NCBI RefSeq assembly: GCF_020171625.1
Contig: NZ_JAIUZY010000001.1
Coordinates: 434,001 to 498,000, forward strand
Origin: Salipiger bermudensis
Lineage (GTDB): Bacteria; Pseudomonadota; Alphaproteobacteria; Rhodobacterales; Rhodobacteraceae
Direction of reading: 5' to 3'
DNA: 64,000 bases
Shown in pieces: positions 264 to 16,789 of this stretch (position 1 is the stretch's first letter; each line of letters begins with the position of its first letter). The translations under genes and the position numbers were made by a program. The notes under the pieces are model-generated. The model made no database searches and had not been told where the DNA came from. It was given only the letters and a program-made list of their open reading frames with translations.

Positions 264-333
264 TCCGGCCCCGGGCTTGCCCCCTTACGCGGCTGTTGCT
301 AGTCACGGGGCAACAGATCGACAGGAAAACACA

Positions 334-1580: not shown

Positions 1581-1584
1581 GCGC

Positions 1585-2370
1585 ATGTTGGCGCTGATCG
1601 CAGGGCAGGGCGCCTTGCCCCGCGCGGTGGCCGACGCCTGCCCGGAGCGCCCTCTGATCTGCGCGCTCGAGCCGCACATGCCCAAGGGGCTTGCGGTGGA
1701 TCGCAGCTTCCGGATCGAGACGCTGGGCAGCTTCCTGCACTGGCTCCGGCAGCGTGGCGTCACGCGGATCTGCATGGTGGGCCGTGTCGCCCGCCCCGAG
1801 ATCCGGCTGGCCCGACTCGACTGGCGCACCGTGCTGATGCTGCCGGCCTTCCGCCGCGCGCTGAAGCGCGGCGACGACGGCGCTCTGCGCATCGTCATCG
1901 GTCTGCTCGAGGGCGCGGGCTTCGAGGTGGTGGGTGCCCACGAGGCCGCCCCCGATCTTCTGCCGCCCTCCGGCGTTCTGACGCAGGTGCAGCCCGGCGC
2001 CGCCGACATCGCCGCGGCACGGCTGGGCGATCAGGTCAGTCGCGAGCAGGGCGCATGCGATTTCGGACAGGCCTGCGTGATCCGCGACGGCGCGGTGCTG
2101 GCGCGCGAGGACGACGCCGGCACCGATGCGATGATCGGCGCGCTTGGGGAGGCAGCGGGCGGCGTTCTCTACAAGGCCGAGAAGCCGGGGCAGGATCATC
2201 GCGCCGATCTGCCTGTGGTCGGGCCCCGCACCGCCGAAGGGGCGATCCGCGCGGGGCTCTCGGGCATCGTGCTCTCGGCGGGGGGCGTGATGATGCTCGA
2301 CCGGGCCGCGATGGTCGCGGCGCTCGACGCTGCCGGGCTGTTTCTCTGGGTGCGGGAGCGCGAGGCATGA
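1585..2370 (+). CDS. lpxI: UDP-2,3-diacylglucosamine pyrophosphatase LpxI
   Basis: 261-residue member of the LpxI (DUF1009) family, which hydrolyses UDP-2,3-diacylglucosamine to lipid X plus UMP. LpxI replaces the unrelated LpxH in most alphaproteobacteria, and its place between lpxA and lpxB supports the assignment. Recognisable family features are the N-terminal 'LALIAGQGALPRAVAD' and the C-terminal stretch around 'YKAEKPGQDHRADLPVVGPRT' with 'GIVLSAGGVMMLDR'. Its TGA overlaps the lpxB start as ATGA. Cytoplasmic, acting at the inner membrane face. Confidence 0.94.
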   Translation: MLALIAGQGALPRAVADACPERPLICALEPHMPKGLAVDRSFRIETLGSFLHWLRQRGVTRICMVGRVARPEIRLARLDWRTVLMLPAFRRALKRGDDGALRIVIGLLEGAGFEVVGAHEAAPDLLPPSGVLTQVQPGAADIAAARLGDQVSREQGACDFGQACVIRDGAVLAREDDAGTDAMIGALGEAAGGVLYKAEKPGQDHRADLPVVGPRTAEGAIRAGLSGIVLSAGGVMMLDRAAMVAALDAAGLFLWVREREA

Positions 2371-3524
2371 AGGTCTATATCACCGCAGGCGAGCCGTCGG
2401 GCGACAAGCTTGGCGCGGCTCTGATGGAGGGCCTCAGGGCGCGGGTGCCCGAGGTCCAGTTCACCGGCATCGGCGGCGAGCGGATGATCGGGCAGGGGCT
2501 CGAGAGCCTGTTTCCCATGGACGAGATCTCGGTCATGGGGATCACCGAGATCCTGCGCCAGTACGGCAAGCTCAAGGCCCGCATCCGCGAGACCGCCGAG
2601 GCGATCATCGCCGCGCGGCCGGATGTGCTGATCACCGTCGACCTGCCGGAGTTCTCGCTGCGCGTGGCCGAGCTGGTCAAGGCGCGTTCCGACATTCGCG
2701 TGGTGCATTACGTGGCGCCCACGGTCTGGGCGTGGCGCCCGAAGCGCGCCATTAAGATGGCGCGCCATGTCGATCAGGTGCTGGCCCTGCTGCCCTTCGA
2801 GCCGCCCTACATGGAAGCCGCCGGGATGCGCTGCGATTTCGTCGGCCACCCGGTGGTGACCGAACCGCAGGCCGGTGCGGACGATGTCGCGGCCTTCCGC
2901 CATCGCCATAGCCTGGGCGAGGCGCCCGTGGCGCTGATGCTGCCCGGCTCGCGCCGCTCCGAGGTCTCGCGGCTGGCGCCGGTTTTCGGCGAGGTGGTCG
3001 CGCGGCTCAAGCAGCAGCGTCCGGACATCCGTATCGTCCTGCCCGCCGCCGCGCCGGTGGCGCCGATGGTCGAGGAACTCTGCGCAGGCTGGGCGGAGCC
3101 GCCGCTGGTGCTCGATCCGCGCGAGCTGGGCGCGGAGATGGCCGCCGAGAAGCGCGCTGCCTTCGCCGCCGCCGACGTGGCGCTCGCCGCCTCCGGCACC
3201 GTCTCGCTCGAGCTGGCCGCCGCGGGCACGCCGATGGTGGTGGCCTACGATATGGGCTGGCTCTCGCGCGAGATCATCGGGCGGATGCTTCTGGTCGACA
3301 CCGTGACGCTGGTGAATCTCGTCTCCGAGACCCGCGCCGTGCCCGAGTTCATCGGCAAGGCCTGCCGCCCGGCACCCATCGCCGAGGCGCTGCTGTCGGT
3401 TCTGGCGGCGCCACAGGCGCAGGTCGAGGCGATGGCGCTGACCATGGAGCGGCTGGGCCGCGGTGGCCCGCATCCGGGCGACCGCGCCGCGCAGGCGGTG
3501 CTCGAGGGGCTGGGGCGGGCCTGA
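2367..3524 (+). CDS. lpxB: Lipid-A-disaccharide synthase LpxB
   Basis: 385-residue family GT19 glycosyltransferase that condenses UDP-2,3-diacylglucosamine with lipid X to the tetra-acyl disaccharide. The N-terminus 'MKVYITAGEPSGDKLGAAL' and the 'GIGGERM' motif are diagnostic, as are 'YVAPTVWAWRPKR' and 'LPGSRRSEV' further on. ATG 2367 was chosen for these reasons and because it overlaps the lpxI stop (ATGA). It is the last gene of the ompH-fabZ-lpxA-lpxI-lpxB run and is followed by a strong hairpin terminator. Confidence 0.97.
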   Translation: MKVYITAGEPSGDKLGAALMEGLRARVPEVQFTGIGGERMIGQGLESLFPMDEISVMGITEILRQYGKLKARIRETAEAIIAARPDVLITVDLPEFSLRVAELVKARSDIRVVHYVAPTVWAWRPKRAIKMARHVDQVLALLPFEPPYMEAAGMRCDFVGHPVVTEPQAGADDVAAFRHRHSLGEAPVALMLPGSRRSEVSRLAPVFGEVVARLKQQRPDIRIVLPAAAPVAPMVEELCAGWAEPPLVLDPRELGAEMAAEKRAAFAAADVALAASGTVSLELAAAGTPMVVAYDMGWLSREIIGRMLLVDTVTLVNLVSETRAVPEFIGKACRPAPIAEALLSVLAAPQAQVEAMALTMERLGRGGPHPGDRAAQAVLEGLGRA

Positions 3525-3546
3525 GCCACCCAGCGATGCCTGACGC

Positions 3547-3580
3547 AAAAAGGGCCGCGGGATGTCCCGCGGCCCTTTCG
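3547..3580. terminator. Bidirectional intrinsic terminator between lpxB and ialB-like gene
   Basis: An 11-bp GC-rich stem (arms 3551-3561 and 3566-3576, tetraloop ATGT) is flanked by A-run on the left and TTT on the right, so it can terminate lpxB on the plus strand and the convergent IalB-like gene on the minus strand; the better T-tract is on the minus strand. Confidence 0.85.
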
Positions 3581-3604
3581 TATCCGGTGTACGATTTAAA
3601 GCGG

Positions 3605-4285
3605 TTACTGGCGCAGCTTCGAGGTCTCGTCGAAGCCCGCGGTGAAGCCCGAAAGCGACATGTCGAGCTCGACCCGCTGGTCCGGGGCCAGAGCGGGCAC
3701 GATGGCGACCGTTGCGGCGCTGCCGGCCTTGAATCGGGCCACGTCGTCGGCGGTGAAGCCCACACGCGCATAGCAGCCGACCTGCGTGCAGAACGAGAAG
3801 TCGTAGCGCTTTGCCTGACCGCCATCGACGGTGATCGACAGCTTCTGGGTCAGCAGGGTCTCGAGCGGCACGACAAAGGTGCCACCGGCGACGACCTGGC
3901 CGCCATTCTGCAGACGGAACACGCTGACCTCGGCCACGTCACCACCGTTCTCATCCTTGAGAAGCTGGTACATCTGGCACGGGTCCTCGGCGTTGGTGCC
4001 CTCGGGCACGCGCAGGCACTGCACCTCCCAGTCGCCGTGGGTCGACTTGGTGTAGGTCTCGGGCTGCTTGCTGCCGGGCGTGTCGGTTTCGCCGGTGCTC
4101 AGCGGACCGCCGATGGAGGTCTGCGGCTGTGCGTCGGACTGGTCTGCGGGCTGCTCGGCAGGCTGCTCAGCCGGCTGTTCTGCCGGCGTCTCGGAGGACT
4201 GCGCGTTGTCCTGCGCGAAGGCCGGGGCGGCAGACAGGCCAACCACGAGCGGCAGGGCCCACAGGGCGGAATGCAGTCTTGTCAT
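3605..4285 (-). CDS. Invasion-associated locus B (IalB) family periplasmic protein
   Basis: 226-residue exported protein. Residues 1-24 form a Sec signal peptide ending in APAFA. Residues 34-49 are four tandem PAEQ/PADQ units, a low-complexity linker, followed by the IalB domain with '[12 protein letters not shown]' and two cysteine pairs ([14 protein letters not shown] and CTQVGC) that are likely disulfides. IalB proteins are common in Alphaproteobacteria; a role in erythrocyte invasion is known for Bartonella, but in free-living relatives the function is open. ATG 4285 has a GAGGGAG ribosome site; the frame upstream of it has no homology. Convergent with lpxB. Confidence 0.88.
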
Positions 4286-4402
4286 GGAAACTCCCTCGGA
4301 ATGGTCATGCGTCCTCGTCCGAGTATCACGGCGCCGACGCAGTGTCAGGCCGGAATTGCCGCGCCCCGGACACAATGGCGGGAAGCCGCAAGTTGGTGCA
4401 AC

Positions 4403-4428
4403 AAAAGAGAAAAGGGACCAGATGGTCC
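4403..4428 (-). terminator. Orphan minus-strand intrinsic terminator (B) upstream of ialB-like gene
   Basis: Read on the minus strand, a 7-bp stem (arms 4422-4428 and 4413-4419) is followed by a U-rich run TTTTCTCTTTT. It lies about 120 bases upstream of the IalB-like start, so it either attenuates that gene's leader or ends a short RNA. A plausible promoter lies upstream on the same strand: TTGACC at 4499-4504, 17 bases, TAGCGT at 4476-4481. Confidence 0.6.
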
Positions 4429-4537
4429 CTTCCCCCTTGCTCCCTGCCGGACCGGCCGGCTTTGTCATTGGCCGAACGCTACGAAACTCTTGTGAAACGG
4501 TCAACAGGCTTTCTCACGCCAGCGCGATCACAATTGC

Positions 4538-4643
4538 ATAAAAAGGCCGCGCCCGAGGGCGCGGCCAGTCTGACAGGGAGGAAGTCCGCCCGAGGCAGGA
4601 GAGGACATGATGCCCCGGGCAAAAAAGATACTGGCGTCAAAAG
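4538..4643 (-). ncRNA. Candidate small RNA ending in orphan terminator (A)
   Basis: A perfect 10-bp GC stem (arms 4545-4554 and 4557-4566) followed on the minus strand by TTTTT is a textbook terminator, but no minus-strand gene ends there: the nearest genes are the IalB-like gene starting further downstream and a divergent plus-strand ATPase gene. A TACAAT -10-like box at 4650-4655 would start an RNA of about 105 bases. The body is CU-rich in two places (CCUCUCCUGCC and CUUCCUCCCUG), resembling anti-Shine-Dalgarno loops of known alphaproteobacterial sRNAs. No convincing -35 box is seen. Inference only. Confidence 0.4.
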
Positions 4644-4686
4644 GTTAAGATTGTATGCTCGGACCGCACGCGCGTGGAGGTCCGGC

Positions 4687-6261
4687 ATGGAAAGTGGCGT
4701 TTTTTTAGGCGGTGGCGGGGAGGGCTACGGCGAGAAACAGTATCTGGCGCTGAAATACGCAAATCGCCACGGGCTGATCGCGGGCGCCACCGGCACCGGC
4801 AAGACGGTGACGCTGCAGATCCTCGCCGAAGGCTTCTCGGCGGCGGGCGTGCCGGTCTTCCTGGCCGATGTGAAGGGCGACCTCTCGGGTCTCGCCAAGG
4901 CCGGCCACGCCGAGGGCAAGCTGCATGACGCCTTCGCTACGCGCAACGCCACCATCGGGTTCGACGATTTCGCTTACGAGGCCTTCCCTACGGTGTTCTG
5001 GGACCTGTTCGGCGCGCAGGGCCATCCCGTGCGCACGACCGTGGCCGAGATGGGGCCGCTGCTGCTGGCGCGGCTGCTCGAGTTGACCGACGCGCAGGAG
5101 GGGGTGCTCAACATCGCCTTCCGCCTGTCGGACGAACAGGGCCTGCCGCTGCTCGATCTCAAGGATCTTCAGGCGCTGCTGGTCTGGGTCGGTGAGAACG
5201 CGAAGGAGCTTTCGCTGCGCTACGGCAACGTCTCCACCGCCTCGATCGGTGCGATCCAGCGCCGGCTTCTGGTGCTCGAGAACGAAGGCGGTGACAGGCT
5301 CTTCGGCGAGCCGGCGCTGGCTCTGGCGGACCTGATGCAGCAGGCCCCGGACGGGCGTGGGCACGTCAACATCCTCGCCGCCGACGCGCTGATGGGCGCG
5401 CCCCGGCTTTATGCCACGTTCCTGCTCTGGCTGCTGTCGGAGCTGTTCGAGGAGTTGCCGGAGGTCGGCAATCCCGACAAGCCGAAACTGGTGTTCTTTT
5501 TCGACGAGGCGCATCTGCTGTTCGACGACGCGCCGAAAGCGCTGGTGGACAAGGTCGAGCAGGTGGCTCGGCTGATCCGCTCCAAGGGCGTAGGGGTGTA
5601 TTTCATCACCCAGAACCCGGACGACATCCCCGAGGACGTGCTCGGCCAGCTCGGCAACCGGGTGCAGCACGCGCTGCGTGCCTTCACCGCGCGGGACAAG
5701 AAGGCGCTGCGGCAGGCCGCAGAGACCTACCGCCCGAACCCCGCCTTCGACACCGAGGTGGCGATCCGCGAGGTCGGCACCGGGGAGGCGGTGACCTCGA
5801 TGCTGCAGGAGAAGGGCGTGCCGGGCATCGTGCAGCGGACGCTGATCCGCCCGCCGGCGTCACAGCTTGGCCCGATCACGCCCGAGGAGCGGGCAGAGGT
5901 GCTGACTGGGTCGAGGTTCGCGAAGACATACGACACGCCGCTCGACCGGCGGTCGGCGTACGAGATGCTCAGGGACCGGGCCGCGCAGGCAGCCGGAGAG
6001 GCCGAGCGCACCGAAGACGAGGCCTCGGAGGCCGACGACGCCGAAGAGGAGGGGCGCGAGTACAACCGCGCCCGGCGCTACGATCCGACGCCGCGCACCA
6101 AGCCGGCACGCAAGACGACCGGCAAACCGCGCCCCAGCAGATACAGCGCGCCGAACTCCATCGGCGAGGCGCTGGGGCAGGCGGTGCTCAAGGAGCTGTC
6201 GGGCACCACCGGAAAGCGCCTCGTGCGCGGCATCCTCGGGGGGCTGTTCAGGGCACGCTAG
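4687..6261 (+). CDS. HerA-like (DUF853) P-loop ATPase
   Basis: 524-residue ATPase of the helicase HerA-like / DUF853 (E. coli YjgR) family. Walker A is GATGTGKT at residues 33-40, and Walker B with an adjoining acidic box is '[12 protein letters not shown]' near residue 270; the FtsK/HerA superfamily core follows, with '[34 protein letters not shown]'. A charged, probably disordered stretch at about 430-490 (acidic, then Arg/Lys-rich) precedes a short hydrophobic end. The start at ATG 4687 has a GGAGG site 6 bases upstream. Biological role of the family is poorly known; DNA translocation is an inference from HerA. Monocistronic. Confidence 0.9.
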
Positions 6262-6295
6262 TCGTGGAGACTGGGCGCCTCTCCGTGCCAGAGAG

Positions 6296-6322
6296 CCGGT
6301 CCCGTCATTGACGGGGCACCGG
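6296..6322. terminator. Possible hairpin after the HerA-like gene
   Basis: Two nested inverted segments (CCGGT/ACCGG and CCCGTC/GACGGG, loop ATT) form a stable hairpin 35 bases after the stop. There is no T-tract, so this is a weak terminator or a 3'-end stabiliser. The rest of 6262-6538 holds no credible gene; it also has short inverted repeats at 6453-6474 and 6479-6501. Confidence 0.4.
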
Positions 6323-6538
6323 TAGCCGGGAGGCCCGCAATGCCGCGCAGGCCGCGTTCAGCGGCTATGGCGGAGGATGAGACGACGGCACAGGTTACGC
6401 GCCCGACCACGAAGCTCGGGTGAGGGCGCTTTGGGCGCAAACCGAACGCGGTCGCGCGTCATTCTGGCGACGCGCCCTTGCTTTCAGACAAACCGAAAGC
6501 AGGCGCGGCGCGGGTGGCGAAAGGTTCGGATCGGCCGA

Positions 6539-6655
6539 TTAGAACCAGCTTTCGACAGTGCGTGCGCCGTTGGAGATGTCCTGTCCGACGCCGTCGATGG
6601 TGGCGCAGCCGCCGAGGGTGGCCGTCAGCGCGGCGATGAGAAGTGCCTGTTTCAT
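6539..6655 (-). CDS. Entericidin A/B family small lipoprotein
   Basis: A 38-residue protein beginning MKQALLIAALTATLGGCA, i.e. a short lipoprotein signal with lipobox LGGC and lipidated Cys17, followed by 'DGVGQDISNGA' and ending SWF. This is the entericidin EcnA/EcnB pattern (toxin/antidote lipoproteins in enterobacteria; single copies of unclear role are common in Alphaproteobacteria). Too short for many gene finders. The ribosome site is weak (GACGAGCAG region). It lies downstream of and co-directional with no clear operon partner: the YejA-like gene ends 82 bases upstream on the same strand. Confidence 0.8.
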   Translation of the reverse strand: MKQALLIAALTATLGGCATIDGVGQDISNGARTVESWF

Positions 6656-6736
6656 GGGTCTGCTCGTCGTTTGTTCTTGTTGGTCTTGCTTGTCGTTTGA
6701 TCCGGTCGCCCGGTCGGGCGCAACCCTACACCGATT

Positions 6737-8557
6737 TCACTGATCCTGCCACCACCACGCGTTCGGCATCCACTCGGTCCAGTCGCCATAGACGGGGATG
6801 TGGTCGGAATAGGTCAGCTCCTTGGCATGGGCGATGCGTGAGACGTTCCACTGGTAGATCGGGATCACGTAGCGCCCGGTGGTCAGGACCCGGTCGAGCG
6901 CGCGTGACGCGGCGACGAAATCCTCGCGGCTGGTGGCGTTGAGCAGCGTGTCGATCATTGCGTCCGCCGCCGGAGACTGCATCCCCATCAGGTTGCGCGA
7001 GCCGTCCTGCATCGCCGCCTCCGAGCCCCAGTAGAGGCGCTGCTCGTTGCCGGGGCTGAGCGAAATGCCGCGGCGGAAGAAGGTCATGTCGAAATCGAAG
7101 CGGCTCAGACGCTCGTTGTACTGCGCGGCGTCGATCACGGTGACGCGAGGCGCGATGCCCATGCGCCGCAGCGCCTGCACGTAGATGTCGATGATCGATT
7201 GCTCTTCGCCGGCGCCCTGGTCGAGCACAATCTCGAACCGGAAGGGCTGCCCGTTGGCGTTCTTCATCACGCCGTCCTGGATGGTCCAGCCGGCCTCTTC
7301 CATCATCCCCATCGCGGCGCCGATGTTGCGGCGGTTGCGGGCGCTGCCGTCGCCCTCGGGCAGGGCGTAGCCCTCGAGCGCACCGGGCAGCAGCGTGTCG
7401 GCGAAGGGCTCGAGCAGCTCGCGCACGCGGCCCTCGGCGGGGCCTTCGCTCATGGCGAGGTCGGAGTTGGAGAAATACGAAGTGATGCGCGGCTGGCGCG
7501 AGCCGGTCATGGTCTCGTTGATGTACTCGAAGTTGAAGGCATGGATCATCGCCGCGCGCACCCGCCAGTCGGCAAAGACACCGCGGCGGGTGTTCATCAC
7601 GAAGCCCGTCATGCCGGTCGGGCGGCCATGCGGGATTTCGGATTTCACTACGTCGCCGCGTTGCACCGCCGGGAAATCGTACTGCGTCTCCCATTTCTCG
7701 GCGTTGTTCTCGCGCAGGGCGTTGAGGGCGCCGGCCTTGAAGGCCTCGAATTGCACGGTGCCGTCGCCGAAGAACTCCATTCGGATCTCGTCGAGATTGG
7801 CCTGACCGGTCATGAAGGGCAGGTCCTTGCCCCAATAATCGGGATTGCGCCTGAGCGTGACGTAGCGCCCGGCCTCGAAATCGTCGATGACGTAGGGCGC
7901 GGTGGTAATCGGCACCACGTCGAGCCCGCTCGAGCCGAAATCGCGGCCCTCCCATTGCGCCTTCTTCAGGATCGGGCGCAGCCCGATGATCAGCGCCAGT
8001 TCGCGATCGTCGCTCGTGAAGGTGAAGCGGATCTTGTTGGGGCCGGTCTGCTCCATGCTCTCGACCTGCGACCATGCCCCGCGATAGCGCGGATGACCCT
8101 CGGTCGCGACGGTCTCGTAGCTCCACATCACGTCCTCGACGGTGACGGGGCTGCCATCCGAGAAGCGGGCCTCGTCGCGCAGGGTGAATTCGACCCATTC
8201 ACGATTCGGCCCCGTCTCGATGGTTTCTGCGAGCAGGCCATAGAGCGAGAACGGCTCGTCCCAGCTGCGGCCCATCAGGCTCTCATAGGCCAGCGAGCGG
8301 AGTTGCCAGGGCACCGAGCCCTTGAGGATGAGCGGATTGAGGCTGTCGAAACTGCCGGTCTCGCCGGTGACCAGCCGACCGCCCTTGGGCGCGTCGGGGT
8401 TCACATAGGGCAGGTGATCAAAATCTGGGGGCAGGGCAGGCTCGCCATACATAGCTATGCCATGCGCAGGCTCGGCGGAGGCGATTCCACCGCAGGCCAG
8501 AATCGCTCCGAGCGCCAGTGCGCCGACCGTGCGGCGCGCGAAATAATCCGCCATCAT
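6737..8557 (-). CDS. ABC transporter periplasmic peptide-binding protein, family 5 (YejA-like)
   Basis: 606-residue extracellular solute-binding protein of family 5. Residues 1-28 form a signal peptide (ending GIASA), after which the mature protein starts 'EPAHGIAMYGEPALPPDFDHLPYVNPDAPKGG', the signature of the YejA/oligopeptide or microcin C-type binding proteins. Length is typical. It should deliver peptides to a YejBEF-type importer, but no permease or ATPase gene lies nearby, so here it is solitary or its partners are elsewhere. Two adjacent ATGs (8557, 8554) are possible; a GAGGGAG site precedes both. Confidence 0.9.
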   Translation of the reverse strand: MMADYFARRTVGALALGAILACGGIASAEPAHGIAMYGEPALPPDFDHLPYVNPDAPKGGRLVTGETGSFDSLNPLILKGSVPWQLRSLAYESLMGRSWDEPFSLYGLLAETIETGPNREWVEFTLRDEARFSDGSPVTVEDVMWSYETVATEGHPRYRGAWSQVESMEQTGPNKIRFTFTSDDRELALIIGLRPILKKAQWEGRDFGSSGLDVVPITTAPYVIDDFEAGRYVTLRRNPDYWGKDLPFMTGQANLDEIRMEFFGDGTVQFEAFKAGALNALRENNAEKWETQYDFPAVQRGDVVKSEIPHGRPTGMTGFVMNTRRGVFADWRVRAAMIHAFNFEYINETMTGSRQPRITSYFSNSDLAMSEGPAEGRVRELLEPFADTLLPGALEGYALPEGDGSARNRRNIGAAMGMMEEAGWTIQDGVMKNANGQPFRFEIVLDQGAGEEQSIIDIYVQALRRMGIAPRVTVIDAAQYNERLSRFDFDMTFFRRGISLSPGNEQRLYWGSEAAMQDGSRNLMGMQSPAADAMIDTLLNATSREDFVAASRALDRVLTTGRYVIPIYQWNVSRIAHAKELTYSDHIPVYGDWTEWMPNAWWWQDQ

Positions 8558-8637
8558 TGCTGAAACACTCCCTCACTGCCCTTGTTTTCTTGGCCCCGGA
8601 CGGTACCGGGGCTTTCACGTCTTTTCAAACTTTTAGC

Positions 8638-8666
8638 TTGGACTCCAGCGGTAAAGCGCGTATAAA
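8638..8666 (+). promoter_or_regulatory. Near-consensus sigma70 promoter for candidate sRNA
   Basis: TTGGAC at 8638-8643 and TATAAA at 8661-8666 with an exact 17-base spacer, unusually good for a GC-rich genome. Predicted start is near 8673. It faces a terminator only about 75 bases away, and no gene lies between. Confidence 0.7.
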
Positions 8667-8672
8667 GAGGGC

Positions 8673-8748
8673 ACTGCTCGATAGGTTTCTTGCCTGTATG
8701 AAACCTGCCTCAATGACTGAACGCCGGCCTTGTGCCGGCGTTTTTTTT
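8673..8748 (+). ncRNA. Candidate small RNA (about 76 nt, two hairpins)
   Basis: Bounded by the promoter at 8638-8666 and a strong intrinsic terminator. Predicted structure: a 7-bp hairpin (arms 8683-8689 and 8700-8706) with a 10-base loop TTGCCTGTAT, a single-stranded linker, then the terminator stem. No open reading frame of note lies inside. It sits between the divergent YejA-like and bdhA genes. Stem-loop, linker and poly-U terminator are what an Hfq-type trans-acting sRNA looks like, but homology to a named sRNA could not be checked. Confidence 0.65.
8721..8748 (+). terminator. Intrinsic terminator of candidate sRNA
   Basis: Perfect 8-bp stem ACGCCGGC/GCCGGCGT (arms 8721-8728 and 8734-8741), 5-base loop, followed by an uninterrupted run of eight T. 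No protein gene on the plus strand ends upstream of it. Confidence 0.9.
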
Positions 8749-8876
8749 GGTTTCGAGCTCGACTGGTGCGGCGCTTTTGCGGCCTGTTCGCGTCGAGCGC
8801 AAGGCGGTTTTGCTCGCGAAAGCGTGAACCCCCGCTTGCGGACCGGCCCGTTTCGGTATTCGCTGATCTTGCAGCT

Positions 8877-8894
8877 GCAGCATGGCCATGCTGC
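8877..8894. promoter_or_regulatory. 18-bp perfect palindrome upstream of bdhA (operator candidate)
   Basis: GCAGCATGG/CCATGCTGC is a perfect 18-bp palindrome centred about 35 bases before the bdhA ATG, with additional GCAG/CTGC words just upstream. A dimeric regulator could bind here; PhaR proteins of Rhodobacteraceae recognise CTGC/GCAG words, though their published spacing (CTGC-N3-4-GCAG) is not matched. Inference. Confidence 0.45.
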
Positions 8895-8919
8895 GGGCGA
8901 GAAAAGCGAGGAGTTTCAC

Positions 8920-9693
8920 ATGTCTCTCAAGGGCAAGACCGCAATCATCACCGGCTCGAATTCGGGCATCGGGCTTGGCGTTGCGCGCGAACTGGCGCGG
9001 GCCGGGGCCTCGGTGGTGCTGAATTCCTTCACCGACAGCGCCGAGGACCACAAGCTGGCCGAGGATCTCGGCAAGGAGTTCGGTGTCGACGCTCGCTATA
9101 TCAAGGCAGACATGTCCAAGGGCGCCGAGTGCCGCGCGCTGATCGAGGCCGCGGGGGCCTGCGATATCCTGGTGAACAATGCTGGTATCCAGCACGTCTC
9201 GCCGATCGACGAATTCCCGGTCGAGAAATGGGACGCAATCATCGCCATCAACATGAACTCGGCCTTTCACTGCACCGCCGCGGCGCTGCCGATGATGCGG
9301 CAGGCGGGCTGGGGCCGGGTGGTGAACATCGCCTCGGCGCACGGTCTGACCGCCTCGCCCTTCAAGTCGGCCTACGTCGCCGCCAAGCACGGGGTGGTTG
9401 GCATGACAAAGGTGGTGGCGCTCGAGACCGCCAAGGAGCCGATCACCGCGAACGCGATTTGCCCGGGCTATGTCAGGACGCCGCTGGTCGAGGCGCAGAT
9501 CCCGGACACGGCCAAGAAATACGACATGAGCGAGGACGAGGTGGTCGAGAAGGTCATCCTCGAGCGCCAGCCCTCGAAGGAGTTCGCCACCACCGAGCAG
9601 ATCGGCGGCACGGCGGTGTTCCTGTGCTCGGACGCGGCGGCGCAGATCACCGGCACCACGATCTCGGTCGACGGCGGCTGGACGGCGCTCTGA
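8920..9693 (+). CDS. bdhA: D-3-hydroxybutyrate dehydrogenase
   Basis: 257-residue short-chain dehydrogenase that oxidises 3-hydroxybutyrate to acetoacetate with NAD, in the use of polyhydroxybutyrate. Nucleotide-binding motif TGSNSGIG is at residues 11-18, NNAG follows, and the catalytic Ser-Tyr-Lys lies in 'NIASAHGLTASPFKSAYVAAKHG'. The segment with 'ICPGYVRTPLVEAQI' and 'GTTISVDGGWTAL' at the C-terminus is characteristic of bacterial HBDH. ATG 8920 has a GCGAGGAG site. Followed by a patatin phospholipase gene, a frequent partner in this family of bacteria. Confidence 0.95.
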   Translation: MSLKGKTAIITGSNSGIGLGVARELARAGASVVLNSFTDSAEDHKLAEDLGKEFGVDARYIKADMSKGAECRALIEAAGACDILVNNAGIQHVSPIDEFPVEKWDAIIAINMNSAFHCTAAALPMMRQAGWGRVVNIASAHGLTASPFKSAYVAAKHGVVGMTKVVALETAKEPITANAICPGYVRTPLVEAQIPDTAKKYDMSEDEVVEKVILERQPSKEFATTEQIGGTAVFLCSDAAAQITGTTISVDGGWTAL

Positions 9694-9728
9694 GCCGCTG
9701 AGCTCCGGGGGCGGCGGTCCGCATTGAG

Positions 9729-9796
9729 GAGGGGCGCTGCCCCTCTTGGCCTGCGGCCAATTCACCCCGGGATATTTCGGGCCAGAAGAAACAGGG
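9729..9796 (+). repeat. REP-like intergenic repeat, copy 1
   Basis: A short hairpin AGGGGCGCTGCCCCT, a second small inverted word (GGCC-tgc-GGCC), then CACCCCGGGATATTT and a purine-rich end AGAAGAAA. The same architecture recurs at 42346-42399. It fills most of the bdhA-patatin gap and ends just before the next gene's ribosome site. I associate this repeat type with Rhodobacteraceae intergenic DNA. Confidence 0.65.
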
Positions 9797-9818
9797 GCGT
9801 TGCACGAAAGGGGCGGCG

Positions 9819-10868
9819 ATGACACGGCGGATCAACCTTGCGCTGCAGGGCGGTGGCGCGCATGGCGCCTTCACCTGGGGTGTGCTCGACCGGTTGCTCG
9901 AGGTGGAGGATCTCGAGATCGCCGCGATCTCGGGCGCCTCGGCCGGGGCGCTCAACGGTGCGGCGCTGAAGGCCGGGCTGGTGCGCGGCGGGCGCGAGGG
10001 CGCGCGCGAGACGCTGGACTGGCTCTGGAACGAGGTCTCGGGGCTGCGCGATATCTCGATTCCGGAATGGATGCACGCGTGGCTGCCGCATCCCGGCACG
10101 GTCAGCAGCGCGGTGCAGTACTCGCTGCCCTTTGCCGCCGGCGAGAGCGTGGGCCGGATGCTGTCGCCCTATGCGTGGGGGCCGCTCTATCGCAACCCGC
10201 TGGAAGACATCCTGCGCCGGATGGAGTTCGCCGATATCTGCGCCGATGCGGGGCCTGCGTTCTTCGTGTCGGCCACGGCGGTGCGCGACGGCAAGGTGCG
10301 GGTGTTCGCGGGCGACACGCTCTGTCCCGAGGCGATCCTCGCCTCCGCCTGCCTGCCGACGCTGTTCCAGGCGGTGGATCTGATCGATCCCGAAACCGGC
10401 GTCACCGAGGCCTTCTGGGATGGCGGCTATTCCGGCAACCCGGCGCTGTTTCCGCTGTTCCGGCCGGAGCTGCCGGACGATCTGGTGATCGTCAACATCA
10501 ACCCGATCGTGCGCGAGGCGGTGCCGGTGACGCCGCCGGAGATCCAGAACCGGATCAACGAGATCAGCTTCAACGCGGCGCTTCTGCGTGAACTGCGCGC
10601 CATCGAGTTCGTGCAGCGCCTGATCGAGGCAGGCTCGGTCGCCGAGGGGGCGATGAAGAAGCTGCGCGTCCACATGATCGCCGATGACAGCTTGATGAAC
10701 GCGCTCTCGGTGGCCACCAAGATGGTGCCGCTGCCGGGCCTGATGGCGCAGCTCAAGGCCGCCGGTCGGCGCGCGGCGGGGAGCTTCCTCGGCGAGCACG
10801 GCGACGCGATCGGGGTGCGCCAGACCGCTGATCTGCGCAAGATGTTCTCGTCTCCGATGCAGTCGTGA
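9819..10868 (+). CDS. Patatin-like phospholipase
   Basis: 349-residue patatin-domain lipid hydrolase. The oxyanion-hole motif GGGAHGAF is at residues 11-18, the nucleophile is Ser41 in GASAG, and the catalytic Asp is in 'DGGYSG' near residue 202; all three are intact, so an active Ser-Asp dyad enzyme is expected. No signal peptide. It follows bdhA on the same strand across a REP-like repeat; in Rhodobacteraceae this pair is common, suggesting a link to polyhydroxybutyrate or membrane-lipid turnover, but substrate is not known. Confidence 0.9.
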   Translation: MTRRINLALQGGGAHGAFTWGVLDRLLEVEDLEIAAISGASAGALNGAALKAGLVRGGREGARETLDWLWNEVSGLRDISIPEWMHAWLPHPGTVSSAVQYSLPFAAGESVGRMLSPYAWGPLYRNPLEDILRRMEFADICADAGPAFFVSATAVRDGKVRVFAGDTLCPEAILASACLPTLFQAVDLIDPETGVTEAFWDGGYSGNPALFPLFRPELPDDLVIVNINPIVREAVPVTPPEIQNRINEISFNAALLRELRAIEFVQRLIEAGSVAEGAMKKLRVHMIADDSLMNALSVATKMVPLPGLMAQLKAAGRRAAGSFLGEHGDAIGVRQTADLRKMFSSPMQS

Positions 10869-11110
10869 GGTCAGGCGCCTTGGGGGCCTTTGCGGGGCGT
10901 CCGTGGCAGGCGCCCTCGGGTTTTGGGGGCGTGCCGTGGATGGTCGCGGGCCAAGGCGCGGAGCGCCTGAGCCACAGGCCATGAATCCGTGCCGAAAATA
11001 AGCGTGAGCGTTCTGACAGACTTCAGAAATGCGCATGGCGACGCGCGGCGCAGCTCTTACAAATGGTGCCAGTTGTCACGCCGTGAGACAGACTACCGCG
11101 GCCCGCGCCC

Positions 11111-11806
11111 TCAGGAGGCCTTGCGCACCGGTTCGACCCGGGGTTTCTCGCCCGGACGCTCGGGCGGATAGACGAGACCCGCCGAGATCACCAGCTTGGC
11201 GGCATCCTCGAGGCTCATATCGAGCTCGACCACGTCCTCTTCCGGGAAGAACAGCAGGAAGCCCGAGGTCGGGTTCGGCGTGGTCGGCACGAAGACCGAT
11301 GTCAGCCCGCCCATCGTCTCGGCGCGCTCCGCGACCTCGCCCTTGGCCTGCGTCGAGATGAAGCCGACGGCCCAGATCCCCTTGCGGGGATATTGCACGA
11401 GGCAGGCCTTCTCGAAGCTGCGCTCGGACTGGGCAAAGACGGTCTCGGCGATCTGCTTGATGCCGGAATAGATCGTGCGCACCACCGGCGTGCGCTCGAC
11501 AAGGCTTTCGGCGAAGCGGATCAGTGACCGCCCGATCAGCCCCTTGGCGACCCAGCCGACGAGGATGGTGAACACCAGAAAGAAGATCACGCCGAGGCCG
11601 CGCAGGTTGATGCCGATATAGGCCTCGGGGTTGAACTGGTCCGGGATCAGCGGCAGCACGAACCCGTCGACGAAGCCGAACATGGTCCAGATGAGCCAGA
11701 TCGTCAGGCCGATGGGGGCGATCACCACCAGACCTGTCAGGAAGCTCGCGCGCAGGGAGGCCAGCAGGCCCCGCCTGCGCGGTGTATCGTCGAAGGGCGT
11801 GTTCAT
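11111..11806 (-). CDS. DUF502 family inner-membrane protein
   Basis: 231-residue membrane protein. Two hydrophobic segments are visible: about residues 18-50 ('FLTGLVVIAPIGLTIWLIW') and about 70-95 ('GLGVIFFLVFTILVGWVAKGL'). After them comes the conserved cytoplasmic or periplasmic core with 'RTPVVRTIYSGIKQIAETV' and 'VFVPTTPNPTSGFLLFFPEEDV', the DUF502 signature. Function of the family is unknown; a plant relative (COV) acts in vascular patterning. Convergent with the patatin gene; upstream on the same strand is psuG. Confidence 0.88.
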   Translation of the reverse strand: MNTPFDDTPRRRGLLASLRASFLTGLVVIAPIGLTIWLIWTMFGFVDGFVLPLIPDQFNPEAYIGINLRGLGVIFFLVFTILVGWVAKGLIGRSLIRFAESLVERTPVVRTIYSGIKQIAETVFAQSERSFEKACLVQYPRKGIWAVGFISTQAKGEVAERAETMGGLTSVFVPTTPNPTSGFLLFFPEEDVVELDMSLEDAAKLVISAGLVYPPERPGEKPRVEPVRKAS

Positions 11807-11885
11807 TGTCCGTCCAGAAGCCGAGTGCCAGGAAGAAGGTAGGCGTACGGGATCAGGTCTACAATGATGCGGCCAAAGCGAAAGC

Positions 11886-12803
11886 TCAATTTCGGGGCAG
11901 GGCGCTTATTTCCTTGGCGATGCGTGCCCCCAGCCGCGCATTGTTCAGGACAAGCGCGATGTTGGAGTCGAGCGAGCGCCCCTCGGTGAGCTCGAAGATG
12001 CGCTGCAGCAGGTAGGGCGTGAGGTCCTTGCCGCGGATGCCGTGGGTCTCGGCGTCGGCATTGGCGCGTTCGATCACCGGGCTCATCTCGCTGCGCACGA
12101 TCTCGGCCTCTGCGGGGATCGGGTTGGCGACGAGCTGGCCGCCGGGAAGCCCCAGCGCGGTGCGCATGGCCTGTGCCTCGGCGATGGCACGCGGGGTGTC
12201 CATGCGCAGCGGCGCGCGCAGGCCGGCCTCGCGCGACCAGAAGGCCGGCAGCTGGTCCTGTCCGTAGGCGATCACCGGCACGCCAAGGGTTTCGAGCACT
12301 TCCAGCGTCTTGGGCAGGTCGAGAATGGCCTTGGCGCCGGCGCAGACCACGGTCACGGCGGTCTGGGCCAGTTCCTGAAGGTCGGCCGAGACGTCGAAGC
12401 TCTGCTCGGCGCCCTTGTGCACGCCGCCGATGCCGCCGGTGGCAAAGGTCGAGATGCCGGCCTGCGCGGCAGCGATCATGGTGGCGGCCACCGTGGTCGC
12501 GCCGGTGCGGCCTTGAGCCATGCACACGGCGAGGTCGGCGCGGCTCAGCTTGGCGACGCCGCGGGCCTGTGCCAGCTTCTCGAGCTGGTCGTCCTCGAGG
12601 CCGACGCAGAGTTCGCCGTCGAGCACCGCGATGGTCGCGGGTTCGGCGCCTTCCTCGCGGATCACCGCCTCGACCTTGCGGGCCATCTCGAGGTTCTGCG
12701 GCCACGGCATCCCGTGGGTGATGATCGTCGATTCCAGTGCCACGACCGGGGCCCCCTTGGCGAGGGCGTCTGCGACGGCGGCGGAAAGTCTGATGTGGCT
12801 CAT
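11886..12803 (-). CDS. psuG: Pseudouridine-5'-phosphate glycosidase
   Basis: 305-residue PsuG/IndA-type enzyme that splits pseudouridine 5'-phosphate into uracil and ribose 5-phosphate (reversible). The N-terminal 'VVALESTIITHGMPWPQN' and 'FATGGIGGVHKGAEQSFDVSADLQEL' are diagnostic. Length is normal. Its ATG overlaps the stop of the upstream kinase gene (ATGA), so both are made from one transcript and together degrade pseudouridine from RNA turnover. Confidence 0.95.
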   Translation of the reverse strand: MSHIRLSAAVADALAKGAPVVALESTIITHGMPWPQNLEMARKVEAVIREEGAEPATIAVLDGELCVGLEDDQLEKLAQARGVAKLSRADLAVCMAQGRTGATTVAATMIAAAQAGISTFATGGIGGVHKGAEQSFDVSADLQELAQTAVTVVCAGAKAILDLPKTLEVLETLGVPVIAYGQDQLPAFWSREAGLRAPLRMDTPRAIAEAQAMRTALGLPGGQLVANPIPAEAEIVRSEMSPVIERANADAETHGIRGKDLTPYLLQRIFELTEGRSLDSNIALVLNNARLGARIAKEISALPRN

Positions 12804-13693
12804 GAGGCGATGTCTCCGGAAACGTAGGCGGCTGCGGCATCCAGGGCGAGGCTCAACGCCTCGGCCCGGGCCGCGCCGCGCAGCTCTGCCACAATATGCG
12901 CCGCCATGAAAGTGTCACCGGCACCGGTGACCCGGGTGACCAGCACCTCCGGTGGCCGTTCGGCCACGAGCCCGTCGGTGGTGGCGTCGCAGGCGGCGTC
13001 TCCGCCATTCGTCACCACGGCACGTGCAGCGCCACGTTCGACAAGCTTTGCAGCGGCTTGCGGGGCGCTCTTGAAGCTTTCCTGACAGAGCAGACCGGCT
13101 TCCTCGAGGTTGACGTACAGCACGCCGCGACCGGCGCGCAGGAACGGCATCAGCCGCTCGGCCTTGCCGGGGCTCGCGGGGGCGATGCGCATGTCGGCCT
13201 TGGCGAAGGCCGCATCGCGGACGATCTCGTCGAGCAGCGTTTCCTTGAGATTGCCGTCGAGCGCGACGGAGCCGGTGAACGGCGTCTCGAGCGTGCCCAG
13301 CGTGCCGTCCGACAGCGGACGAAGGATGCGCGAGCCTGCGCGCTCGAGCGAGTGGGCATCCGCGATGGCGGCGATCAGCCCGTTGGCGCCTTCGACGGCC
13401 ATGTAGCGATCGGTGGGCAAGTCCTCGGAACGATAGAGAAATCTGGTATCGCAGCCGAGCTGTTCGCAGGCCTCGGCCAGTTCGTGGCCTTCGGGATCCT
13501 GACCGACGGAAGAGAGCAGCGCCGGGCGCAGCCCGAAGCGCGCCAGCGTCATCGCGATGTTGAGCGCCACGCCGCCGGGAAGACGGGTGATGCGGCCGGG
13601 CACGTCGGAGCCCTGGCGCATGTGGCTGGCGGAGCGTCCGATCACGTCCCACAGGACGGAGCCGATGCAGAGAATGTCCGGTGTATCTGTCAT
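12800..13693 (-). CDS. psuK: PfkB-family pseudouridine kinase
   Basis: 297-residue ribokinase/PfkB-family sugar kinase. The N-terminus 'ILCIGSVLWDVIGRSA' and the C-terminal ATP/active-site motif 'VTGAGDTFMAAH' with the catalytic Asp are intact. Coupling to psuG identifies the substrate as pseudouridine (phosphorylated to the 5'-phosphate). Start ATG 13693 has an AAGACGGA site; upstream in-frame codons have no homology. No transporter gene is adjacent, so uptake would rely on another locus or the pair serves internal salvage. Confidence 0.9.
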   Translation of the reverse strand: MTDTPDILCIGSVLWDVIGRSASHMRQGSDVPGRITRLPGGVALNIAMTLARFGLRPALLSSVGQDPEGHELAEACEQLGCDTRFLYRSEDLPTDRYMAVEGANGLIAAIADAHSLERAGSRILRPLSDGTLGTLETPFTGSVALDGNLKETLLDEIVRDAAFAKADMRIAPASPGKAERLMPFLRAGRGVLYVNLEEAGLLCQESFKSAPQAAAKLVERGAARAVVTNGGDAACDATTDGLVAERPPEVLVTRVTGAGDTFMAAHIVAELRGAARAEALSLALDAAAAYVSGDIAS

Positions 13694-14141
13694 GTCCGTC
13701 TTTTGACCGAGCCGGGCGGGTCCGACAAGTGCGAAGCAGCGCGATGCGGGGTCCGCAAGCACTTTGCCTGAGGGCGCGAGGCTGGTATCTCAAACCGTGG
13801 AGCCGTAAGGCTTTTCGTTGTTGGCTAAACGGCCAGACCTCAGCGTCACGCCGCAACCGCGCTTGGTTTGGGGGCTTGAGGGGGCGGTCGTACCGGTCCT
13901 CAGATCAGACATCCATCTATCTTATAATCAGTATTATGTAAATATAATTGGCAGCCAAAGCACGGAATGCATTGAATTATCGGGTTTGGCCCCTGATCCA
14001 GCGCCCCGCAGCAAGGCTCACATCGCAAACAGGCTTGCGCCATGGCGGCAAACCAGTGCACCCCCGCGTCGGTAATGGCGCTTATTTACAAGCGCAGGTT
14101 TACGACGAACACTGAACCCAGTCTGCCGAAGGTCCCGCACA
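13694..14141. other. 448-bp intergenic region with AT-rich island between psuK and aroQ
   Basis: No gene is visible. Positions 13905-13985 form an AT-rich island, striking in this GC-rich window, with TATAAT-like words at about 13921-13926 and 13948-13953. An inverted repeat GCGCTT-N6-AAGCGC (14078-14095) lies 47 bases before the aroQ start and is a likely operator. psuK and aroQ are divergent, so this region holds both promoters. Confidence 0.6.
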
Positions 14142-14585
14142 ATGCCCAGCTTCCTCATTCTTAACGGTCCGAACCTGAACCTCCTCGGCGTGCGCCAGCC
14201 CGAGGTCTACGGGCGCACCACGCTGGCCGATGTCGAAGCCATGTGCCGTGCCCACGCCATCGAAATCGGCGTCGAGGTCGAGTTCGAGCAGAGCAACCAC
14301 GAAGGCGCGCTGGTCGATGCGATCCACGGCACGCGTGGACGGATCGATGGCCTGATCCTCAATGCCGGCGCCTACACCCACACCTCCATCGCCCTGATGG
14401 ACGCGATCAGCTCGGCCGAGATCCCGGCGATCGAGCTGCACCTGTCGAATGTCCATGCCCGCGAGGCATTCCGCCACCAGAGCTACATCGCTCGGGTCTC
14501 GGTCGGCGTGATCTGCGGCTTCGGGGCGCGCGGTTACACGCTGGCGATGGACGCGATGAAGAGCCATCTGGACGCCGCGCCATGA
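14142..14585 (+). CDS. aroQ: 3-dehydroquinate dehydratase, type II
   Basis: 147-residue type II dehydroquinase of the shikimate pathway (3-dehydroquinate to 3-dehydroshikimate). All key motifs are present: NGPNLNLLG with the active-site loop Arg and Tyr (RQPEVYG), SNHEG, NAGAYTH, IELHLSN and GFGARGY. Normal length. Its TGA overlaps the ATG of a LuxR-type regulator (ATGA), an unusual pairing of a housekeeping gene with a quorum-sensing-type regulator. Confidence 0.97.
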   Translation: MPSFLILNGPNLNLLGVRQPEVYGRTTLADVEAMCRAHAIEIGVEVEFEQSNHEGALVDAIHGTRGRIDGLILNAGAYTHTSIALMDAISSAEIPAIELHLSNVHAREAFRHQSYIARVSVGVICGFGARGYTLAMDAMKSHLDAAP

Positions 14586-15349
14586 CAGCCTGCGCGACCC
14601 TGCACAGCCGGCTTCTCGAAATGACCAATGCCGGCAGCGTCGAAGCCCTCTGGGCCATGCATGTCGAGAGCATGGCCGGCTTTGGCTTCGACCGGCTGAT
14701 GTACGGGTTCACGCGCTACCGCACCACGACCTCGCTCGGCGATCCGAATGATTTCGTGCTGCTGACCAACCATAGCACCGACTATATCGACGGCTTCGTC
14801 GGCCAGGGTCTGTATCATCATGCGCCCATGGTCCGTTGGGCGCTTGAGCATGACGGCGCCTGTTCGTGGCGTGTCCTCGGCGAGATGATGGCCGAGGGCA
14901 AGCTGACGGACGTCGAGCGGCGCGTGATCGCGTTCAACCTGTCGATGGATGTGCGCGCCGGCTACTCGGTGAGCTTTCGCTCGCTCTCGACCCGCGCGAA
15001 AGGCGCCATCGCGCTGACCGCGCGGGCCGGACTGCAGCAGCACGAGGTCGATGCCGTCTGGGAGCGTCACGGTGAGGAGATCACGCTGCTCAACAACCTG
15101 CTGCATCTCAAGATCCTCACCCTGCCCTATATCCCGCCGAACCAGTCGCTCACGAAGCGCCAGCGCGAGGCGCTGGAATGGGTCGGCGACGGCAAGACTA
15201 TGCAGGACATCGCGGCGATCATGGGGCTGACACAGGCCACCATCGAAAAGCACCTGCGGCTCGCGCGGGAGGCGTTGAACGTAGAAACCACCGCCCAGGC
15301 GGTAGCCAAGGCCGCGTTCCAGAACCAGATGTTTATAATCGACATCTGA
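14582..15349 (+). CDS. LuxR-family regulator with autoinducer-binding-type domain (solo)
   Basis: 255-residue two-domain regulator. Residues 1-165 fit the LuxR autoinducer-binding fold ('FGFDRLMYGFTRY', 'GYSVSFRSL'); residues 185-245 are a LuxR helix-turn-helix ('LTKRQREALEWVGDGKTMQDIAAIMGL', 'TIEKHLRLAREAL'). No luxI-type synthase gene is in the window, so it is a LuxR solo here. The canonical ligand residues could not be aligned with confidence, so whether it binds acyl-homoserine lactone is open. Translation is coupled to aroQ through an ATGA overlap, making the start certain. Confidence 0.9.
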   Translation: MTACATLHSRLLEMTNAGSVEALWAMHVESMAGFGFDRLMYGFTRYRTTTSLGDPNDFVLLTNHSTDYIDGFVGQGLYHHAPMVRWALEHDGACSWRVLGEMMAEGKLTDVERRVIAFNLSMDVRAGYSVSFRSLSTRAKGAIALTARAGLQQHEVDAVWERHGEEITLLNNLLHLKILTLPYIPPNQSLTKRQREALEWVGDGKTMQDIAAIMGLTQATIEKHLRLAREALNVETTAQAVAKAAFQNQMFIIDI

Positions 15350-15752: not shown

Positions 15753-15781
15753 AAAAAGGAGCCGCCCCGGGGGGCGGCTCC
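15753..15781 (-). terminator. rpsB-tsf operon terminator
   Basis: An 11-bp GC stem (arms 15758-15768 and 15771-15781) followed on the minus strand by TTTTT, placed about 35 bases after the tsf stop. Confidence 0.9.
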
Positions 15782-15815
15782 TGTCATTGCTAGCCTTCGA
15801 AAGAGCGCGGCGGGA

Positions 15816-16691: not shown

Positions 16692-16789
16692 GTGCTTGGC
16701 TCCCTCTCGAGTGGTCGTGTGCGGCAGGCCCTGCCCCGGGCCTTGCCGCTCATGTCATGCTTGCGTGACGCTTTCGCGACAGCGGCGGA

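What the first reader, a model, noticed from the sequence alone, without database searches (positions are those of the whole stretch)
8638..8748. Promoter-terminator pair with no gene: strong small-RNA candidate
Seen: TTGGAC-17 bp-TATAAA, then about 55 bp, then a perfect stem with eight T. Between them a 7-bp hairpin with a 10-base loop. No protein frame. This is the cleanest small-RNA signature in the window, about 76 nt, between a YejA-like gene and bdhA. Inference: a trans-acting sRNA, possibly tied to carbon storage or peptide uptake.
Basis: partly seen in the sequence, partly recalled or inferred. Interest (0 to 1): 0.65.

Follow-up and report, generated by a model that had tools for sequence, protein, structure and literature searches.

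The report
Ultraconserved orphan small RNA of Rhodobacteraceae
A gene for a roughly 76-letter RNA, with its own start and stop signals, sits between two ordinary metabolic genes; nearly the whole bacterial family Rhodobacteraceae carries it with its central 40 letters almost unchanged, but what it regulates is not yet known.

Summary
The 80-nt query matches 384 of 394 sampled family genomes (345 of 347 good-quality ones). The 40-nt core is letter-identical in 369 of 394. In a class-wide sample of 385 only five genomes matched, all from this family.

The terminator helix covaries (9 of 9 pairs), while the upstream hairpin is almost frozen (6 of 7 pairs never vary). No Rfam 15 family reaches its gathering score here. 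It is not SorX, probably not StsR, and no small ORF is conserved.

A YejA-like gene flanks it in 92 of 99 loci and bdhA in 70. Five loci lack both; four of these keep the same wider neighbourhood. So it behaves as an autonomous gene, and the suggested tie to peptide uptake or carbon storage is not supported.

Most likely it is a trans-acting, Hfq-type base-pairing sRNA under extreme sequence constraint. Expression, Hfq binding and targets are untested. It may already be an unnamed entry in published RNA-seq catalogues.

The parts
8625..8634 (+). Conserved AT-rich element (TCAAACTTTT) just upstream of the -35, about -48 to -39; UP-element-like or an activator site
   Evidence: Column conservation in 96 family loci at fixed distance (63-84 of 96 per base); TCAAACTTTTAGCTTGG occurs once in the window, 0 expected. 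Function inferred.
8638..8643 (+). -35-like hexamer TTGGAC
   Evidence: Sequence; TTGG conserved in 96 loci (T 92, T 80, G 82, G 69 of 96)
8661..8666 (+). -10-like hexamer TATAAA, 17-nt spacer
   Evidence: Sequence; TAT conserved in 87-90 of 96 loci
8673..8748 (+). Small RNA gene, about 76 nt; 5' end inferred, 3' end at the T-run
   Evidence: 384 of 394 family genomes match the 80-nt query; covariance model 105.4 bits here, next window hit 10.8 bits (this copy is in the model)
8673..8682 (+). 5' segment ACUGCUCGAU, single-stranded in the favoured fold; candidate seed 1
   Evidence: Nearly invariant; one draft genome has ~30 nt inserted between it and the hairpin (L083), so it looks like a separate module
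8683..8706 (+). Hairpin AGGUUUC / GAAACCU with loop UUGCCUGUAU
   Evidence: 6 of 7 pairs never vary in 91 distinct sequences; kept whole in 13 of 14 variant sequences, one pair lost in the other
8700..8712 (+). GAAACCUGCCUCA: longest strictly invariant run in alignment A1; candidate seed 2
   Evidence: Invariant columns 31-43 in 91 of 91 sequences of A1
8713..8719 (+). A/U-rich linker before the terminator, possible Hfq contact
   Evidence: Consensus AATAACTT in A1, variable in part; Hfq role inferred
8720..8748 (+). Intrinsic terminator: GC-rich stem plus 8 T
   Evidence: 9 of 9 pairs with changes on both sides, whole-structure measures not reached in 500 shuffles
6737..8557 (-). Divergent neighbour: family 5 extracellular solute-binding protein (YejA-like); not part of the RNA gene
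   Evidence: PF00496 203 bits; no NCBIfam model over its cut-off; beside the RNA in 92 of 99 loci
8920..9693 (+). Downstream neighbour: 3-hydroxybutyrate dehydrogenase (bdhA); not part of the RNA gene
   Evidence: TIGR01963 365 bits, cut-off 307; found downstream in 70 of 99 loci

Best explanation
The locus encodes an autonomous, vertically inherited, ~76-nt orphan small RNA of Rhodobacteraceae. It is transcribed from its own sigma-70-like promoter with a conserved upstream element and ended by an intrinsic terminator. It most likely works in trans as an Hfq-type base-pairing regulator: the 5' segment ACUGCUCGA and the 3' segment GAAACCUGCCUCA, on either side of the UUGCCUGUAU loop, pair with mRNAs, the GCCUC part probably at GAGG-type ribosome-binding sites. 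Shown: gene anatomy, near-universal presence in the family, extreme sequence constraint, terminator covariation, independence from the neighbours. Inferred: transcription, Hfq binding, pairing segments, targets.
For: 384 of 394 family genomes match the 80-nt query (345 of 347 good ones); exact 40-nt core in 369 of 394. In 385 class-wide genomes only five matched at E <= 0.001, all of this family. Terminator stem changes on both sides at 9 of 9 pairs; 97% of cells of the whole structure paired against 35-53% when partners are slid; 0 of 500 shuffles reach the observed measures. Promoter hexamers at constant spacing and conserved U-tract. RNA kept in 5 of 99 loci with neither neighbour found, 4 of these still beside the DUF502-like/PsuG-like/rpsB-like block. 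No conserved ORF.
Against: No expression data were available. No target found: exact 10-nt complements of both candidate segments in three genomes gave no shared start-site target (20 of the 50 places of the second pattern were not read). Invariance of 40 nt including both stem arms is more than seed pairing usually requires, so protein recognition or a single invariant partner is possible. In the pair counts, sliding partners by +1 also shows 9 pairs with a change on both sides and one more pair type, although pairing and covariation score collapse. The promoter is weak against the E. coli consensus.
Confidence: 0.7

Rival explanations
1. A housekeeping RNA that acts through one invariant partner (a protein, or a universal RNA such as rRNA or another stable RNA) rather than through many mRNA seeds.
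For: Both arms of the hairpin are frozen with no compensatory exchange in 91 sequences, and a 13-nt run is invariant in 91 of 91, while the neighbouring YejA-like protein falls to 47-60% identity in a number of the same loci.
Against: Short size and terminator look like an ordinary sRNA; loop and GATA positions do change in rare variants. No partner was tested.
Confidence: 0.2
2. A 5' leader attenuator (riboswitch-like) of bdhA: the terminator controls read-through into the dehydrogenase gene.
For: Same strand; bdhA begins 172 nt after the end of the T-run in the window and was found downstream in 70 of 99 loci.
Against: No bdhA in 27 loci that have at least 1.46 kb of DNA downstream. The terminator stem changes freely while the upstream core is frozen, so the core is unlikely to pair with it as an antiterminator.
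Confidence: 0.04
3. A DNA element: the inverted repeat AGGTTTC-N10-GAAACCT is an operator in the divergent yejA/bdhA intergenic region.
For: Perfect inverted repeat between divergent genes.
Against: Spacer and both flanks are nearly as invariant as the half-sites, a polar, covarying terminator follows in the aligned copies, and the element persists where neither gene was found.
Confidence: 0.03
4. A small coding RNA: ATG at 8698-8700 opens MKPAS...
For: ATG at this place in most loci; a 7-codon frame in 44 of 104 loci.
Against: Frame length varies from 5 to over 40 codons and two loci have no start codon there; codon third positions are frozen too, unlike protein-level selection; I see no ribosome-binding site before it.
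Confidence: 0.02

Closest known systems
SorX (RF02784), singlet-oxygen-induced sRNA of Rhodobacter sphaeroides
   Same: Similar length and layout (5' tail, hairpin, C/U-rich linker, GC terminator); best Rfam hit, 27.4 bits
   Different: Below the gathering score of 46.6; the window's genome has a separate true SorX at C8:210189 (82.8 bits), and R. sphaeroides has SorX at another place
StsR (RSs0827), 72-nt orphan sRNA of R. sphaeroides, under RpoHI/RpoHII, targets UpsM and rpoE (PMC8307010: abstract, introduction, section 2.4 and passages seen)
   Same: Orphan gene, ~72-76 nt, same family of bacteria
   Different: Our RNA lies at ~1444 kb of R. sphaeroides chromosome 1. The positions of SorY/RSs1543 (1633 kb) and SorX/RSs2461 (2598 kb) imply ~875 kb for RSs0827 (indirect; the SorX and SorY numbers RSs2461 and RSs1543 are recalled)
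Paracoccus denitrificans 'Intergenic 134' (84 nt) and other RNA-seq sRNAs (PMC5107571: section 12 and passages seen)
   Same: Expressed, conserved through Rhodobacteraceae, reported in shared gene context with R. sphaeroides; the numbering suggests chromosome 2 (my inference), and our RNA is on large plasmids in three Paracoccus species
mmgR / suhB family (RF00519), recalled as a PHB-related sRNA of rhizobia
   Same: Short alphaproteobacterial sRNA; PHB theme
   Different: 18.6 bits against a gathering score of 41; not a member

Membership tests
Hfq-dependent trans-encoded sRNA (functional class) | Independent transcription unit: own promoter and intrinsic terminator | tested here: met
   Conserved -35/-10 at fixed spacing and covarying terminator with U-tract; sequence-level only
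Hfq-dependent trans-encoded sRNA (functional class) | No conserved open reading frame | tested here: met
   Frame length not conserved in 104 loci
Hfq-dependent trans-encoded sRNA (functional class) | Retained independently of the flanking genes | tested here: met
   In 5 of 99 loci neither neighbour was found within about 1.5 kb
Hfq-dependent trans-encoded sRNA (functional class) | Binds Hfq; is expressed | not testable with these tools
   No RNA-seq or co-immunoprecipitation data at hand
Hfq-dependent trans-encoded sRNA (functional class) | Conserved mRNA targets by base pairing | tested here: inconclusive
   Two exact 10-nt complements searched in three genomes; no shared start-site target. 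Shared genes were malic enzyme (site on the opposite strand) and TypA (site deep in the gene); 20 of 50 places of the second pattern not read
SorX (RF02784) | Reaches the Rfam gathering score (46.6 bits) | tested here: not met
   27.4 bits; true SorX elsewhere in the same genome
Any Rfam 15 family | Match at gathering score | tested here: not met
   Only a tRNA in the whole window
StsR (RSs0827) | Same locus in R. sphaeroides 2.4.1 | tested here: inconclusive
   Position does not fit when interpolated from SorX and SorY; StsR sequence not available, primary paper not held
cis-acting leader of bdhA | Downstream gene always present; alternative antiterminator pairing | tested here: not met
   No bdhA in 27 loci with at least 1.46 kb downstream; terminator changes without change in the core

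The most novel reading that the evidence does not exclude
A family-wide housekeeping small RNA whose 40-nt core is frozen across hundreds of genera because it meets an equally invariant partner (a dedicated RNA-binding protein or a universal RNA), making it more like 6S or 4.5S RNA in standing than like an ordinary stress sRNA, and not captured by Rfam.
Probability: 0.22. Interest if true: 0.78.

Novelty: new member of a known kind. Interest (0 to 1): 0.56.

Why it matters
Trans-acting sRNAs usually keep a short seed and drift elsewhere (general knowledge). Here about 40 nt are nearly frozen across almost 400 sampled genera of a major marine and soil family, and the RNA is kept where both flanking genes are gone. 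That points to a core function, testable in R. sphaeroides 2.4.1, Dinoroseobacter shibae or Paracoccus, where the same RNA is present. No Rfam 15 family covers it at gathering score, so annotation that relies on Rfam misses it; the alignment and covariance model made here would be a start for adding it.

Tried and rejected
Targets. Exact 10-nt complements of the 3' segment (26 places) and of the 5' segment (50 places, 30 of them read) in three genomes gave no shared start-site target; three places in each set are the RNA's own complement. Both patterns are commoner than the same letters reversed: 9, 8, 9 against 1, 5, 8 for the first, and 19, 17, 14 against 3, 4, 3 for the second. I put this down to codon content but did not test it. 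TTGAGGCAGG recurs in all three genomes in what looks like one gene (L188, L195, L199). In two of them (L195, L199) I checked that the gene is an NADP-dependent malic enzyme on the opposite strand (967 and 973 bits, under that model's cut-off of 1178), so the site would be antisense to the mRNA; an open frame that happens to start there on the other strand is not taken as a gene. ATCGAGCAGT recurs deep inside typA in two genomes (TypA_BipA 908 bits for L222, the one scanned). RNAduplex gave unusually good energies there (2 and 0 of 200 shuffles as low), which I set aside because the site is some 250-320 codons into the frame. Pairing to the yejA-like and bdhA start regions equals background (means -26.5 over 92 and -27.4 over 70 loci, against -26.3 kcal/mol over 1040 random segments; one yejA value, -73.9, is probably overlap with the RNA gene's own complement and was left in).

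Alternative fold. The minimum-energy fold of 8670-8755 uses another hairpin (UCGAUAGGU with GCCUGUAUGA). It depends on GGCA upstream of the inferred start. Of 14 variant sequences, five break it (L088, L087, L171 by script; L176 and L083 by eye), two change it only in ways that keep its pairs (L175, two changes; L076, three changes) and seven leave it untouched (five by script, L172 and L063 by eye).

Other. Partial second matches in relatives (G311, G005, G013) and in R. sphaeroides chromosome 2 were read. The last seems to lie in a coding stretch; the others are unexplained. No exact 22-nt hairpin in viral contigs. Six sequence strings searched in the literature brought only unrelated papers among the 20 listed of 30. 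Searches for RSs13/RSs14 names found none. Placing the Paracoccus copy against published P. denitrificans coordinates failed, because the genus searched (4 genomes) does not look like Paracoccus.

Rows dropped. Alignment A1 holds 91 of 93 distinct trimmed sequences; L061 (trimmed too short) and L083 (insertion) were left out by me. Loci cut by contig ends or where the core pattern failed (for example L063, L090) had been excluded in that script. The 25 of 394 genomes without the exact core are 10 without any match, 14 variants and one split at a contig end. R. sphaeroides 2.4.1 and D. shibae were identified by recalled replicon lengths (3,188,524 and 3,789,584), supported for the former by SorX and SorY; the genomes themselves are unnamed. 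An earlier count said that most variants break the alternative hairpin and that the 380 class-wide misses lie outside the family; the first is wrong (five of 14) and the second was not shown in full (family given for 20 of the 380).

Full report
WHAT IS THERE. Between a divergent family-5 solute-binding-protein gene (YejA-like; PF00496, 203 bits) and bdhA (3-hydroxybutyrate dehydrogenase, TIGR01963 365 bits over a cut-off of 307) lies a promoter-terminator pair as described: TTGGAC 8638-8643, 17 nt, TATAAA 8661-8666, hairpin 8683-8706, terminator 8720-8742 with eight T at 8741-8748. The stretch 8670-8755 folds better than all 200 dinucleotide shuffles (z -4.59). Alone this would be modest: the strict promoter scan finds nothing here, and terminator-like sites in window 1-20000 are near expectation (13 against 10.9).

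CONSERVATION. The 136-nt query found the locus in the 37 genomes of its family in a sample of 61 (own genome included). In the other 24 it gave only two matches, both covering the terminator alone. In a family-wide draw of 394 genomes, essentially one per genus, 384 had a match to the 80-nt query (345 of 347 with completeness at least 90% and contamination at most 5%); the weakest, E 6e-10, is split at a contig end. The ten misses are drafts; two of them (G175, G197) pass the quality limits, and both have over 300 contigs. The exact 40-nt core ACTGCTCGATAGGTTTCTTGCCTGTATGAAACCTGCCTCA is in 369 of 394 (333 of 347), once per genome as I read the table, except in G223, a draft where it appears twice, one copy at a contig end. 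A covariance model (R1) run over 385 class-wide genomes, with the tool's stricter filters, hit 5, all in this family; the family is printed for only 20 of the 380 without a match, and these 20 are from other families. Named carriers include Salipiger, Alloyangia, Maritimibacter, Tritonibacter, Frigidibacter and Jannaschia (30 loci) and Paracoccus versutus, P. pantotrophus and P. ferrooxidans on large plasmids. The R. sphaeroides 2.4.1 copy (identified by recalled replicon length plus SorX/SorY hits) has a closely similar promoter, the same core and the same two neighbours.

WHERE THE CONSTRAINT LIES. In 96 aligned loci most of the promoter spacer is near random, while TTGG and TAT are conserved, as is an upstream CAAACTTTT block. 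Conservation jumps at 8673 and stays at 1.77-2.0 bits per base to 8713, which places the start at A8673 (inferred). In 91 distinct sequences GAAACCTGCCTCA is invariant. The hairpin pairs never vary in 6 of 7 cases, and the seventh departs in one sequence. The terminator helix changes on both sides at 9 of 9 pairs; 0 of 500 shuffles reach the observed values of the five measures. When partners are slid, pairing falls from 97% to 35-53% and the covariation score from 0.191 to 0.028-0.079, although the +1 slide also shows 9 pairs with a change on both sides and 22 further pair types against 21. So the terminator is kept as a structure and the core as a sequence. One draft genome carries an inserted ~30-nt self-complementary stretch between the 5' segment and the hairpin (L083), which suggests separate modules. 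The alternative minimum-energy hairpin is broken by five of the 14, but two others change it only in pair-preserving ways, so a switch between two folds is not excluded.

INDEPENDENCE. Of 99 loci the YejA-like gene was found in 92 (one of the seven without it ends 35 nt upstream, L033) and bdhA in 70. Of the 29 without bdhA, L064 and L072 are cut by contig ends, and the other 27 have at least 1.46 kb downstream. Neither was found in five. In four of these five the flank still holds orthologues of the window's DUF502-like, PsuG-like or rpsB-like genes at 11.1-17.6 kb (names recalled from sequence, not from a library; similarity). The simplest reading is that the neighbours were lost and the RNA kept. 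The fifth (L084) lies beside genes without a match in the window.

MECHANISM. Shown: gene anatomy, phylogenetic range, type of constraint, independence from neighbours. Inferred: transcription; Hfq binding through the U-tract and the A/U-rich linker; trans base pairing by ACUGCUCGA and/or GAAACCUGCCUCA, whose CUGCCUC would pair with GAGGCAG at ribosome-binding sites. A first look for targets failed, so no regulon is proposed. The frozen stem arms leave open a single invariant partner instead of many mRNAs.

COMPARISON. No Rfam family is met at gathering score. SorX is the nearest (27.4 bits against 46.6), but the genome has its own SorX (82.8 bits). StsR (72 nt, RpoHI/RpoHII-dependent; PMC8307010: abstract, introduction, section 2.4 and passages seen) is unlikely. 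With SorY (RSs1543) at 1633 kb and SorX (RSs2461) at 2598 kb (positions; the two RSs numbers recalled), RSs0827 should lie near 875 kb, whereas our RNA is at 1444 kb. The same rule would give an index near 1366; I recall an R. sphaeroides sRNA called RSs1386 from older work, but no call confirms it. R. sphaeroides has 79 known and predicted sRNAs, 38 of them orphan (PMC8625941, passages seen), and P. denitrificans has expressed conserved candidates (PMC5107571, section 12 and passages seen), so this RNA may already be listed somewhere without a family description. My literature searches did not find it; only open-licence papers were searched, only listings were seen for most of them, and supplements were not available.

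VERDICT. A real, autonomous, ultraconserved small RNA gene of Rhodobacteraceae on sequence evidence: ordinary in kind, unusual in degree of constraint, function open.

Noticed in passing
window 4539-4629 (-): A SorX/SorY-like RNA candidate (SorX model 35.6 bits, E 1.2e-6, below gathering 46.6) with a TTCCTCCCTGT linker and a strong terminator-like site (4566-4545), between an IalB-family gene and a HerA_C-family gene. Pairwise alignment to R. sphaeroides SorY shares the CCTCCCTGT linker and a terminator. Neither neighbour was found beside R. sphaeroides SorY (L162), so orthology to SorY is not supported by context.
   Followed up: partly
G000:C1:167846-167914 (-), locus L124: A second above-threshold SorX match (51.7 bits) in the same genome besides the main one at C8:210189.
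   Followed up: no
window 8625-8641: TCAAACTTTTAGCTTGG overlapping the -35 is conserved across most of 96 loci and unique in the window; it may bind an activator or act as an UP element. It is weak or absent in many of the most divergent genomes.
   Followed up: partly
L083 (G269): Copy with a ~30-nt inserted self-complementary stretch between ACTGCTCGA and the hairpin; draft genome, so an assembly error is not excluded.
   Followed up: partly
window 8678-8701: An alternative hairpin (UCGAUAGGU with GCCUGUAUGA) is about 1.2 kcal/mol from the favoured one when the core is folded with and without its 3' end; L076 and L175 change five of its bases in all and keep every pair, five other variants break it. 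Possible bistable RNA.
   Followed up: partly
L244 (G311:C1:334137-334160): A 24-nt partial second match covering the loop, 3' arm and GCCTCAA (96% identity), no T-run following; decayed paralogue or chance.
   Followed up: partly
L245 and L246 (G005, G013): 25-nt partial matches (92%) to the GCTCGATA...TTTCTTGCCTGTATG part in two relatives of the same genus; unexplained.
   Followed up: partly
window 52897-52970 (-): tRNA gene, the only Rfam gathering-score match in the window.
   Followed up: no
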